Below are positions 23,227 to 26,077 of a stretch of 64,000 nucleotides of DNA, in pieces. The stretch lies in contig NZ_UGNW01000001.1 in assembly GCF_900452515.1 (NCBI RefSeq), forward strand, positions 2,604,001 to 2,668,000, in the 5' to 3' direction. Within the stretch, counting starts at the first letter, position 1. The number at the start of each line of letters is the position of its first letter. The stretch is from Legionella birminghamensis. Its GTDB lineage: Bacteria > Pseudomonadota > Gammaproteobacteria > Legionellales > Legionellaceae. Made by a program: the position numbers and the translations under genes. Under the pieces are notes generated by a model. That model was not told the DNA's origin. It did no database searches and was given only the letters and a program-made list of their open reading frames with translations.

Positions 23227-23254
23227 TTGATCAAATGCGCGACTCTAATATAAT
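23227..23254 (+). promoter_or_regulatory. Promoter of the Cys-array peptide gene
   Basis: TTGATC (23227-23232), 16-bp spacer, TATAAT (23249-23254). Transcription from about 23261 would give a leader of about 128 nt. The leader includes the hairpin GCCAGAA/TTCTGGC near 23323-23343. The consensus -10 suggests strong expression. Confidence 0.65.
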
Positions 23255-23388
23255 TAAATTAACCTTTTGAAACTGTAAGCAAGCTTTGATGCGGCTGACA
23301 AAGTTCTGAAGGAGTACCGTGTCGCCAGAACACTTTTTCTGGCTTTACAAGTGTGTTTCATATAACTTTTTCGAAGGAAGGATTCATT

Positions 23389-23607
23389 ATGAAAAAATCG
23401 ACTTTAGCCGTGGCCGCATTATTGACTGCCCTTTCAGCTGCTTCTGTTGTTCCTGCAGCTTATGCTGATTCAACTACAACTCAAGCAAGCGGTTGCGCTG
23501 GTTGCAAAGGTTGTAAAGCTTGCAATGGCTGTAAAGGCTGCAACGGATGCAAAGGCTGTAAAGGTTGCAATGGCTGCAAAGGCTGTGGCGGCTGCAGCGG
23601 TAGCTAA
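23389..23607 (+). CDS. Secreted peptide with a perfect Cys-x-x array
   Basis: A 72-residue protein. Residues 1-26 form a Sec signal peptide (KKS, hydrophobic core, cleavage after AYA). The mature part, after a short linker (DSTTTQAS), is an array in which cysteine falls on every third residue: positions 36, 39, 42 and so on to 69, twelve in all. The intervening residues are only Gly, Lys, Asn and Ala. This suggests a periplasmic metal-binding or modified peptide. ATG 23389 is supported by GAAGGA upstream. The partner gene follows after a hairpin. It is not the bufferin fold and no DUF692 modification enzyme is nearby. Function unknown. Confidence 0.8.
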   Translation: MKKSTLAVAALLTALSAASVVPAAYADSTTTQASGCAGCKGCKACNGCKGCNGCKGCKGCNGCKGCGGCSGS

Positions 23608-23620
23608 TATTTTTTAAAAA

Positions 23621-23647
23621 GGAAGCGTTTTAACGCTTCCTTTCTTT
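23621..23647 (+). terminator. Intrinsic terminator inside the two-gene cassette
   Basis: GGAAGCG (23621-23627), six-base loop, CGCTTCC (23634-23640), then TTTCTTT, preceded by an A-tract. It separates the Cys-array gene from the next gene, which starts 15 bp after it. Partial read-through would give more peptide than partner protein. Confidence 0.8.
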
Positions 23648-23661
23648 AGTGTGTAATTCCC

Positions 23662-24390
23662 ATGTCTGAATTTTCATTCCCTGATTTAAGTAAAGCAAAA
23701 CAGGCTCGTCTTTTGGCTTATGCTTCCCAAATTTTGGAAGCCCAGCAACAAATGACAACTGCCAAAGGCAAAAACATCATTCATTACACGCTGCAAAAAA
23801 AACGCCGCCATGAGTCAATGAGTCATTATCCCAAAGGGGATCGCATTGATCGCCAAACGGGCGCCCAATATTTTTATCATTGCCATCGCGAAGATTTTGA
23901 CAATATGGAGCATGGACACTTCCATTGCTTCCTGCGCTACAAAGGGATCCCTGCCAGAATCAAGCCTAGTCCTTTACCCGATTGGGATAAGCACATGGAT
24001 AACCCGATGGCCCATATCGTCGCTATTTCGATGAATTGCTACGGCCAGCCCATCCGTTTATTCACTGTTAATCGCTGGGTATCATCAGAAATCTGGTATG
24101 ATGCCAAACATGTTTCAAGTTTTATCAAACAATATCAGATGACTCTGGAAGATGATCCTTATTGGCAAATTCTGGATCAATGGGTCGAAGGTATGCTGCA
24201 TTTATTCGAACCCCAGATTACCTGGTTGCATCAGGAAAGAGACCGGCAGATTGCCAGGATAAAGGCAGACAATCCGGGGGCGAATCCTTATGAGGATCAT
24301 CGCTTCGAAGAATTGTCTCAAATCGAAATTGACCTGCCTACACAAGTTCAGTGGGTGTTAAACTCTATAAACCAGGAAAATATTGCCTGA
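23662..24390 (+). CDS. His-rich protein partnered with the Cys-array peptide (unknown family)
   Basis: The 242-residue cytosolic protein has no signal peptide. Its central region is dense in metal-ligand residues: FYHCHREDFDNMEHGHFHCF (around 71-90), followed by HMDNPMAHIVAISMNCYG. The rest is helical. I could not assign a function; a DUF6969-like annotation is possible from memory but not verified. The gene begins 55 bp after the Cys-array peptide, behind a terminator, and has no promoter of its own that I can see, so it probably depends on read-through. A role in maturing, loading or sensing the peptide or its metal is an inference. Confidence 0.7.
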   Translation: MSEFSFPDLSKAKQARLLAYASQILEAQQQMTTAKGKNIIHYTLQKKRRHESMSHYPKGDRIDRQTGAQYFYHCHREDFDNMEHGHFHCFLRYKGIPARIKPSPLPDWDKHMDNPMAHIVAISMNCYGQPIRLFTVNRWVSSEIWYDAKHVSSFIKQYQMTLEDDPYWQILDQWVEGMLHLFEPQITWLHQERDRQIARIKADNPGANPYEDHRFEELSQIEIDLPTQVQWVLNSINQENIA

Positions 24391-24634: not shown

Positions 24635-25810
24635 ATGCATTTCAAGTTACCACCTGTATGGTTAATTGTGCTCATCGCTGGGCTTCCTCAGCTTTCTGAA
24701 ACAATATATACGCCTTCTTTACCTGATATTGCCCGAAGTTTACATACCTCGGCATCGATGATTGAATATACCCTTAGTATTTATTTATTCGGTTTTGCCA
24801 TTGGCACCCTGGTCTGGGGTAAATTTTCGGACAGATTTGGTCGAAAACCCGGCATACTAATCGGCTTGCTTATCTTTATTCTCGGCTGTATGGGATGCTA
24901 TTTTTCTACCACGATTGAGGGACTGATGCTGAGCCGTTTTATACAGGCTTTTGGAGGGAGCATCGGCAGTGTACTCGGCCAAGCCATTTGCCGGGATGCA
25001 TTTCAGGGAAGTGCCTTGGGTAAAGTCTACTCTGTGGTCGGCAGCGCCCTGGCCGTTTTTCCTGCGATAGGTCCTGTGGCAGGAGGGTTAATTGCTGAAA
25101 CTCTGGGTTGGCGTACTATTTTTATTGTACTGGCCTGTTTCTGCCTGTTTTTATTTTTTTTAATCACTCAGAAACTGCCGGAAACCCATCTGCCAGAAAG
25201 AAGAACAAACATCTCAATGAGAGCAGTCGCCAATCAGTTGGTTAGGAATAACAAAGTGATGGGATTTGCTTTTCTGGTCGCTGGATGTAACGGTATTTCT
25301 TTCAGCTATTTTGCAGAAGGCCCCTTCTACTTTATCAAGATGCTTGGTTTATCACCCAGTCAGTATGGTATGAGTTTTATTGCGCTCGCAATGAGTACCA
25401 TGATGGGCGGTCTGGTGTCCAAACGTCTGCATACCCATTACTCTTCCGACAAAATAATGCGATATGGTCTGCTTATTATTTTGATAGCGACAATTTCATA
25501 CAGCAGCTTTGCTGTGGTTTCCAATTTGCCGCCCGCAATAATGATTACGGCCAGTCTTATTATGCTAATGATTATTATGTTCGGAAGCTGCATGGTAACC
25601 AGTAATGCGCTGGCTTTGGCCCTGACTGATTTTAAATGGTGTATTGGAACAGCATCCAGCCTGTTCGGATTTCTATACTATTGTTTAATTTCTCTTTTTA
25701 CAGTAGGTATGGGCTATTTTCATAATGCTACATTATGGGCCATGCCGCTTTATTTTTTGGGAATTGGTCTGTTTATGTTTTTGGTCGACAAACTGATGAT
25801 TAAGTCTTGA
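24635..25810 (+). CDS. MFS drug-efflux transporter, Bcr/CflA-like
   Basis: A 391-residue protein with 12 membrane helices. MFS motif A is visible after helix 2 (GKFSDRFGRKPG), an aspartate-containing helix 1 (SETIYTPSLPDIA) is typical of the DHA1 Bcr/CflA group, and the helix-5 motif appears as FPAIGPVAGGLIAE. The substrate cannot be named; small hydrophobic drugs or siderophore export are known for relatives. The start ATG 24635 has GAGG. Its leader contains a mini-ORF and a terminator, suggesting induced expression. Confidence 0.85.
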   Translation: MHFKLPPVWLIVLIAGLPQLSETIYTPSLPDIARSLHTSASMIEYTLSIYLFGFAIGTLVWGKFSDRFGRKPGILIGLLIFILGCMGCYFSTTIEGLMLSRFIQAFGGSIGSVLGQAICRDAFQGSALGKVYSVVGSALAVFPAIGPVAGGLIAETLGWRTIFIVLACFCLFLFFLITQKLPETHLPERRTNISMRAVANQLVRNNKVMGFAFLVAGCNGISFSYFAEGPFYFIKMLGLSPSQYGMSFIALAMSTMMGGLVSKRLHTHYSSDKIMRYGLLIILIATISYSSFAVVSNLPPAIMITASLIMLMIIMFGSCMVTSNALALALTDFKWCIGTASSLFGFLYYCLISLFTVGMGYFHNATLWAMPLYFLGIGLFMFLVDKLMIKS

Positions 25811-25853: not shown

Positions 25854-26077
25854 CGACTCCCCGCGGCTGCGACCATCCGAATCCCCGCGGCTGCGACCGC
25901 GGGGCCCATGTCTGAGTGAGCCTCAGCTTATATTAATCCGTTCGGCCTGAGGAGCCGCTTTAGCGGCGTCTCGAAGACTTCGCTTGGTGCCAAGCCTTCG
26001 AGACGGAGCTTTGCTCCGTCTCAGGCCGAACAGTGTTAATACAATTTGGGTATGGGCATCGACCGCGGGGATTCAAT
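25854..26077. repeat. GC-arm element carrying an inserted second repeat
   Basis: GC arms at 25854-25909 (two arms, CCCCGCGGCTGCGAC type, ending GGGGCCCATG) and the single right arm GACCGCGGGGATTC (26061-26074) enclose a core interrupted by the TTCGGCC palindrome at 25941-26030. This accounts for most of the 285-bp gap between the MFS and monooxygenase genes. Confidence 0.75.
25941..26030. repeat. TTCGGCCTGAG palindrome, copy 2, multi-branched
   Basis: A 90-bp element with outer arms TTCGGCCTGAG / CTCAGGCCGAA. Internal stems are GCCGC-TTTA-GCGGC, CGTCTCGAAG / CTTCGAGACG and GACGGAGC-TTT-GCTCCGTC. It would fold into a branched cruciform. Flanks TTAAT (25933) and TTAAT (26036) hint at a target duplication. 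It lies inside a copy of the GC-arm family. Confidence 0.8.

What the first reader, a model, noticed from the sequence alone, without database searches (positions are those of the whole stretch)
23227..24390. Two-gene cassette: secreted twelve-cysteine periodic peptide plus His-rich partner
The mature peptide places Cys at every third residue from 36 to 69 without a single break, separated only by Gly/Lys/Asn/Ala. Such regularity is rare and implies metal clusters, a multi-thioether product or a redox polymer. The gene has a consensus -10, a signal peptide, and is followed by a terminator that lets a fixed fraction of transcripts reach a His/Cys-rich cytosolic protein. No methanobactin or bufferin enzymes (DUF692, DUF2063) are next to it. 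It could be a new metal-storage, metal-sequestration or modified-peptide system. Seen: the array, signal peptide, hairpin, neighbour motifs. Inferred: metal role and partnership.
Basis: partly seen in the sequence, partly recalled or inferred. Interest (0 to 1): 0.8.

Follow-up and report, generated by a model that had tools for sequence, protein, structure and literature searches.

The report
Cysteine-array peptide with dedicated DUF6969 partner
A small exported bacterial peptide with a cysteine at every third position travels with an uncharacterised, probably metal-using protein (DUF6969), and where relatives have lost that protein the peptide has often lost its cysteines too, which suggests an undescribed peptide-processing system.

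Summary
In detail: a 72-aa peptide (23389-23607) with a signal-peptide-like N-terminus and Cys at every third residue from 36 to 69, a hairpin, then a 242-aa cytosolic protein (23662-24390) of Pfam DUF6969 (PF22308, 253 bits). The partnership is well supported. Cys-repeat ORFs lie within 700 nt upstream of the DUF6969 motif in 26 of 52 loci (0.71/kb; 0-0.01/kb beyond 4 kb). In Legionellaceae, 23 of 23 peptide homologues in DUF6969+ genomes keep at least 3 mature Cys; 4 of 6 in DUF6969- genomes have none, the other two 3 and 5. A flanking-gene tree shows three supported sister pairs of this kind. DUF6969 has an invariant YHxH...EHGHFH...H set, no conserved Cys, and a confident model (pLDDT 91) without a PDB match. 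Outside Legionella several pairs sit with YeeE/YedE-type transporters, rhodaneses, SoxA/TsdA-type cytochromes or a BigR-like regulator. Best reading: a RiPP-like pair in which a cytoplasmic metalloenzyme acts on the cysteines of a Sec-exported precursor, giving a periplasmic carrier of sulfane sulfur or a soft metal. It works like bufferin/MNIO but is not one. Catalysis, cofactor and product are inferred.

The parts
23227..23254 (+). putative promoter TTGATC-16-TATAAT of the peptide gene
   Evidence: not above shuffles by count; both boxes invariant in G003 and G008
23389..23607 (+). exported Cys-array peptide, 72 aa
   Evidence: ORF, ribosome site, homologues in 29 Legionellaceae genomes, this one included
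23389..23466 (+). signal peptide / probable leader, residues 1-26, ending AYA
   Evidence: sequence; A3 alignment; 0 nonsynonymous against 27 synonymous changes over 7 close, non-independent pairs
23494..23595 (+). Cys array, residues 36-69, Cys every third residue
23618..23643 (+). intergenic hairpin, 11-bp stem, terminator/attenuator-like
23662..24390 (+). DUF6969 protein, 242 aa, no signal peptide seen, putative metalloenzyme
   Evidence: Pfam PF22308 E 1.9e-75; model pLDDT 91
23875..23931 (+). His motif YHCH...EHGHFHCF (residues 72-90)
   Evidence: Y72 H73 H75 E83 H84 G85 H86 F87 H88 invariant in A1 (25 sequences) and A2 (48 sequences); F90 nearly invariant

Best explanation
The two genes form a RiPP-like pair. 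The first encodes a precursor whose conserved Sec signal peptide probably also serves as the recognition leader and whose variable, low-complexity tail carries the cysteines. The second, DUF6969, is a cytoplasmic His-site metalloenzyme that acts on those cysteines before export. The exported product is a periplasmic polythiol-type carrier for a thiophilic cargo: sulfane sulfur, or a soft metal. The hairpin between the genes keeps peptide output above enzyme output. Shown: the pair, its conservation and spread, the linked loss of enzyme and cysteines, the invariant His set, sulfur-gene neighbours outside Legionella. Inferred: catalysis, metal, modification before export, the cargo, and the role of the hairpin.
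For: Partnership: Cys-repeat ORF upstream within 1.5 kb on the same strand in 28 of 36 Legionellaceae-type loci, and within 3 kb on either side in 53 of 98 others; 0.71/kb within 700 nt upstream of the DUF6969 motif, 0.02-0.12/kb in the bins between 700 nt and 4 kb upstream, 0-0.01/kb beyond 4 kb. The pair keeps together in different gene surroundings in Legionellaceae. Dependence: mature Cys 3-15 in 23 of 23 homologues with DUF6969, zero in 4 of 6 without (Fisher p 6e-4, not corrected for kinship); in G021, G011, G042 and G015 the next gene after the peptide is YbeY, where several relatives have DUF6969 in between; PHP-gene tree of 11 rows with three sister pairs at 100/99, 97/96 and 96/94, one with and one without, needing at least 3 changes. 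Enzyme-like: Y72 H73 H75 E83 H84 H86 H88 H118 N137 W139 invariant across 25 divergent members; no conserved Cys. Leader-like: signal peptide conserved, core variable. Sulfur context: divergent SoxA/TsdA-type cytochrome, then Sulf_transp, peptide, DUF6969, rhodanese and a BigR-like ArsR (below the BigR cut-off) in one locus; sulfurtransferase-YeeE/YedE-peptide-DUF6969 in Sinorhizobium; NPC-repeat cytochromes with P460 (L095) or SoxA-TsdA (L110) domains over cut-off.
Against: No chemistry is shown. In the window the neighbours are a glutamate-synthase-like gene and an MFS transporter, not sulfur genes. G026 and G015 keep 5 and 3 Cys without DUF6969. L. bononiensis (L072) has DUF6969 without an adjacent peptide, and 45 of 98 other loci show no Cys repeat within 3 kb by the strict scan. 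Sixteen of those 45 were taken further (one was not held): of 15 genomes searched, 10 have a Cys-repeat match elsewhere and the five Azospirillum genomes gave none. NPC arrays occur in 2 of 339 DUF6969- class genomes. Some peptides carry His as well as Cys (L075, Burkholderia glumae, G026), which suits metal binding. One of the tree pairs (G047/G021) is not recovered by the Sua5 tree, where G021 is placed elsewhere with weak support (29/77).
Confidence: 0.55

Rival explanations
1. Unmodified periplasmic metallothionein-like peptide; DUF6969 is a metal loader or metallochaperone, with no covalent chemistry.
For: Dense Cys, His added in some members; a His-rich partner; Burkholderia glumae copy beside arsenosugar genes; a DUF2282 bufferin gene beside one pair.
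Against: Among the neighbours scanned, sulfur genes recur and no metal transporter was seen, but most neighbours were not scanned. DUF6969 is cytosolic by sequence while the peptide is exported. The invariant Y, E, N and W around the His set look catalytic (inference).
Confidence: 0.25
2. DUF6969 keeps the Cys-rich precursor reduced or export-competent (chaperone or antidote); loss of DUF6969 makes the cysteines harmful, so they are lost.
For: Explains the linked loss without any modification.
Against: No conserved Cys for thiol redox; a strictly invariant polar/His set would be unusual for a chaperone (inference).
Confidence: 0.1
3. A bufferin-type RiPP modified in trans by an MNIO (DUF692) enzyme encoded elsewhere.
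For: The genome has two MNIO genes; Sec-exported Cys-rich precursors are typical of MNIO systems (PMC12452194, section 15 read).
Against: 12 of 28 DUF6969+ genomes have no PF05114 match, nine of them at least 90% complete. BufA2 model 9.9 bits against a cut-off of 60.
Confidence: 0.04
4. Low-complexity repeat drift with no function.
For: Repeat number varies between close relatives.
Against: Signal peptide under purifying selection; linked loss; wide spread with DUF6969.
Confidence: 0.03

Closest known systems
Bufferins and other MNIO (DUF692)-modified RiPPs (PMC12452194: passages and section 15 read)
   Same: Cys-rich precursor with a Sec signal peptide, a separate cytosolic partner gene next to it, repeated Cys motifs, many lineages
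   Different: No MNIO; partner is DUF6969, with no match to MNIO models and no fold match; sulfur rather than copper genes recur among the neighbours scanned
SoxYZ sulfur carrier with YeeE-type SoxT importer (PMC12423496: passages read; the GGCGG arm of SoxY is recalled)
   Same: periplasmic Gly-flanked Cys; YeeE/YedE-type transporter and an ArsR-type regulator in some loci
   Different: no SoxY domain; many Cys in a short peptide; dedicated DUF6969 partner
Bacterial metallothioneins and copper storage proteins (recalled)
   Same: many Cys, possible metal binding
   Different: strict i+3 low-complexity array, exported, tightly linked partner gene

Membership tests
Pfam DUF6969 (PF22308) | profile score over the curated cut-off | tested here: met
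   253.3 bits against 27
Bufferin / MNIO RiPP | MNIO (PF05114) gene beside the precursor | tested here: not met
   nearest MNIO of the genome over 200 kb away; none in 12 of 28 DUF6969+ genomes
Bufferin / MNIO RiPP | precursor matches DUF2282 or BufA models | tested here: not met
   no DUF2282 hit at E<=5; BufA2 9.9 bits against 60
Bufferin / MNIO RiPP | DUF2063-type partner | not tested
   not searched genome-wide; the three window neighbours scanned besides the pair are other families
Bufferin / MNIO RiPP | Sec signal peptide and Cys-rich core in the precursor | tested here: met
   sequence and A3 alignment; no dedicated signal-peptide predictor was available
RiPP in general | post-translational modification of the core | not testable with these tools
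   needs mass spectrometry
SoxY carrier | SoxY Pfam domain | tested here: not met
   only a sub-threshold collagen hit for the peptide at E<=5
Heterocycloanthracin-type bacteriocin | TIGR03601 over the cut-off | tested here: not met
   20.6 bits against 35
Known fold for DUF6969 | match in the PDB | tested here: inconclusive

The most novel reading that the evidence does not exclude
DUF6969 founds a new class of RiPP-maturing metalloenzyme with a new fold. Across Pseudomonadota it converts the cysteines of Sec-exported Cys-repeat peptides (and of cytochromes bearing the same repeats) into a modified thiol form that carries sulfane sulfur between the periplasm and YeeE/rhodanese pathways; Legionellaceae keep a stripped-down two-gene version.
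Probability: 0.35. Interest if true: 0.9.

Novelty: new variant of a known kind. Interest (0 to 1): 0.75.

Why it matters
That gives DUF6969 a testable substrate, suggests a RiPP-like class outside MNIO, and may reveal a periplasmic sulfur or soft-metal carrier in rhizobia, other Pseudomonadota and Legionellaceae.

Tried and rejected
Bufferin in trans rejected. Collagen, bacteriocin, phage tail-fibre and adhesin hits of the peptide look like composition matches; those of Pfam and NCBIfam are below their cut-offs. Defence system: no PADLOC hit at E<=0.1. Phage origin: no DUF6969 match in 50,697 phage records. Rfam: only two sub-threshold matches, both covering the hairpin. PDB sequence and fold searches found no relative; a missing match does not prove a new fold. 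Greedy ORF calling in GC-rich loci mixed in antisense frames, so the association count rests on the later scan, whose distances are counted from the EHGHFH motif, not from the gene start. Catalytic geometry could not be measured because the model's coordinates were not readable in the script box; strand assignment puts most of the His on two neighbouring strands, which is inference. The hairpin was compared with shuffles only for the window copy. No control set of ordinary signal peptides was run.

Literature. Seen inside: PMC12452194 (passages, section 15) and PMC12423496 (passages); all other papers in search listings only.

Full report
What is there. The window lies in a 3.79-Mb genome of the GTDB genus that includes G005, whose contig has the same length (580,697) as Legionella rubrilucens NZ_LNYT01000022.1. 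The peptide gene 23389-23607 encodes MKKSTLAVAALLTALSAASVVPAAYA followed by a short linker and twelve Cys at residues 36-69, every third residue. The longest such run in 200,000 shuffles of the mature part was 8. A hairpin (23618-23643) separates it from a 242-aa gene, 23662-24390, that scores 253 bits against Pfam DUF6969. No NCBIfam model at E<=5 and no PHROG or PADLOC model at E<=0.1 matches that protein.

The partner is a family, and the peptide goes with it. Upstream lies, in many loci, an exported small ORF with repeated Cys whose motif differs by lineage: GCKGC in Legionellaceae; NPCAAKNPC in other Gamma- and Alphaproteobacteria; SPCGL/SPCSL next to YeeE/YedE-type genes; APCAAGAPC in Sinorhizobium; GCCAAEGCC in lipoprotein-like forms; CAPKCAPKC in Burkholderia glumae. 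A uniform scan over 146 distinct DUF6969 loci, 134 of them with at least 1.5 kb upstream of the motif, found a Cys-repeat ORF upstream on the same strand within 1.5 kb in 28 of 36 Legionellaceae-type loci (L001-L022, L059-L082), and within 3 kb on either side in 53 of 98 others. In 52 loci with 5.5 kb on both sides the rate was 0.71/kb within 700 nt upstream, 0.02-0.12/kb in the bins between 700 nt and 4 kb upstream, 0.00-0.06/kb downstream, and 0.00-0.01/kb beyond 4 kb. The scan is strict: several loci that it scores as empty carry irregular or short Cys peptides on inspection (L047, L053, L081, L209). Sixteen of the 45 empty non-Legionella loci were taken further, one of them not held: of 15 genomes, six carry Cys-repeat P460 cytochromes and four more an NPC-repeat match elsewhere; the five Azospirillum genomes gave none. 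In Thalassospira the distant NPC peptide again sits beside a YeeE-like ORF (by eye, not scanned). Specificity: NPC-type arrays were found at E<=1e-5 in 5 of 30 DUF6969+ and 2 of 339 DUF6969- class genomes (Fisher p 5e-5).

A natural experiment. An alignment search found 29 Legionellaceae genomes with a clear peptide homologue (weaker matches in G006, G017, G018, G023 and G062 were left out, and so at first was a second copy in G043). All 23 in genomes with DUF6969 have 3-15 Cys in the mature part (two are cut by contig ends); the second copy in G043, also a DUF6969+ genome, has 3. Of six without it, four (G011, G021, G033, G042) have none, G015 has 3 and G026 has 5 with added His (Fisher p 6e-4). 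In one set of genera the order is Sua5-PHP, then peptide-DUF6969-YbeY-CorC; in G011, G015, G021 and G042 YbeY is the next gene after the peptide. A tree of the flanking PHP gene (11 rows) pairs G020 (10 Cys) with G033 (0), G047 (13) with G021 (0), and L082 (10) with G011 (0), at 100/99, 97/96 and 96/94, and needs at least three changes. The YbeY and Sua5 trees are less resolved: Sua5 keeps the first and third pair (86/81, 90/94) but places G021 elsewhere with weak support (29/77), and makes G026 (5 Cys) sister to L080 (12 Cys) at 100/99. So loss of DUF6969 was repeatedly accompanied by loss of all cysteines while the signal peptide stayed, with two partial exceptions. This is the strongest evidence that the cysteines are what DUF6969 acts on.

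Anatomy of the peptide gene. The signal peptide is more conserved than the core: 0 nonsynonymous against 27 synonymous changes over seven close, non-independent pairs, as in RiPP leaders, although a control with ordinary signal peptides was not run. A stem of at least 9 bp lies between the genes in 28 of 40 rows with clade-specific sequence, which fits a maintained attenuator. Several different genes flank the pair within Legionellaceae, so the two genes stay or move together.

Function. In the window itself the neighbours are uninformative. Elsewhere: a divergent SoxA/TsdA-type cytochrome, then split Sulf_transp, peptide, DUF6969, two-domain rhodanese, ArsR regulator closest to BigR (110 bits, cut-off 155) and a YgaP-like membrane protein (L207); Sulf_transp, SPCGL peptide, DUF6969, rhodanese (L208); a metallo-beta-lactamase-type protein related to SoxH (below that cut-off), sulfur-transporter-like ORFs (by eye), peptide, DUF6969, rhodanese (L209); sulfurtransferase, YeeE/YedE, unannotated Cys peptide, DUF6969 in Sinorhizobium meliloti and S. 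medicae. By clustering, 11 of 108 loci have the Sulf_transp-type neighbour, 9 the rhodanese and 14 an FGE-sulfatase-like gene (one member of each cluster scanned). Longer proteins with the same NPC repeats carry cytochrome domains: P460 in L095 and SoxA-TsdA in L110 over cut-off, CCP_MauG over cut-off in L130, SoxA-TsdA just under in L116. I therefore rank a thiophilic carrier role with sulfane sulfur slightly ahead of metals; His-containing members and the arsenosugar and bufferin neighbours keep metals open.

Comparison. The closest known systems are MNIO-modified, Sec-exported, Cys-rich RiPPs; the 2025 survey describes small ORFs with signal peptides and 1-18 Cys preceding MNIO genes (PMC12452194, section 15 read). 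The logic is the same, the enzyme is not: MNIO is absent from 12 of 28 DUF6969+ genomes. It works like that kind but is not a member. No paper was found that mentions DUF6969, PF22308 or the two repeat strings searched (one open-access library only).

Verdict. Real, widespread, with strong genetic evidence for partnership and a plausible but unproven enzymatic mechanism.

Noticed in passing
L217:5607-5971 and L220:5610-5953 (Sinorhizobium): The Cys-repeat peptide between the YeeE/YedE gene and DUF6969 is not in the listed annotation of these two records; DUF6969 is called hypothetical protein.
   Followed up: partly
L219:5403-5753 (Burkholderia glumae plasmid): A Cys/Lys/His-rich exported peptide and DUF6969 sit among arsenosugar biosynthesis, CcdA/thioredoxin, sigma-70/zf-HC2 and MFS genes.
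   Followed up: no
L102, L116, L138 and others: Long NPC/GAC-type Cys arrays (52 NPC-type motifs in L116) fused to what are, where scanned (L095, L110, L116, L130), cytochrome-like domains, near DUF6969; the meaning of arrays on cytochromes is open.
   Followed up: partly
L101:4962-5849, L102, L108, L121, L123; L230 (G115): FGE-sulfatase-like genes recur beside DUF6969 (one scanned), and a similar ORF (by eye) lies beside an NPC-repeat cytochrome-like ORF in G115, where no DUF6969 was found; a possible second Cys-acting partner.
   Followed up: partly
L033:2324-2635: A DUF2282 (bufferin) gene lies next to an NPC-peptide/DUF6969 pair.
   Followed up: no
L166 (G026): Peptide homologue without DUF6969 that has become His- and Cys-rich, as if converted to a metal binder.
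   Followed up: no
L216 and Azospirillum loci L094, L119, L124, L129, L135: DUF6969 without a detected Cys-repeat peptide; beside Mla-type ABC genes in A. lipoferum 4B (L216).
   Followed up: partly
L072 (Legionella bononiensis): DUF6969 with no peptide gene directly upstream.
   Followed up: no
window 24635-25810: Bcr/CflA-type MFS transporter downstream of the pair; a related ORF also follows it in G003 and G008.
   Followed up: no
window 25857-25905: Short direct repeat CCCCGCGGCTGCGACC after the MFS gene (by eye).
   Followed up: no
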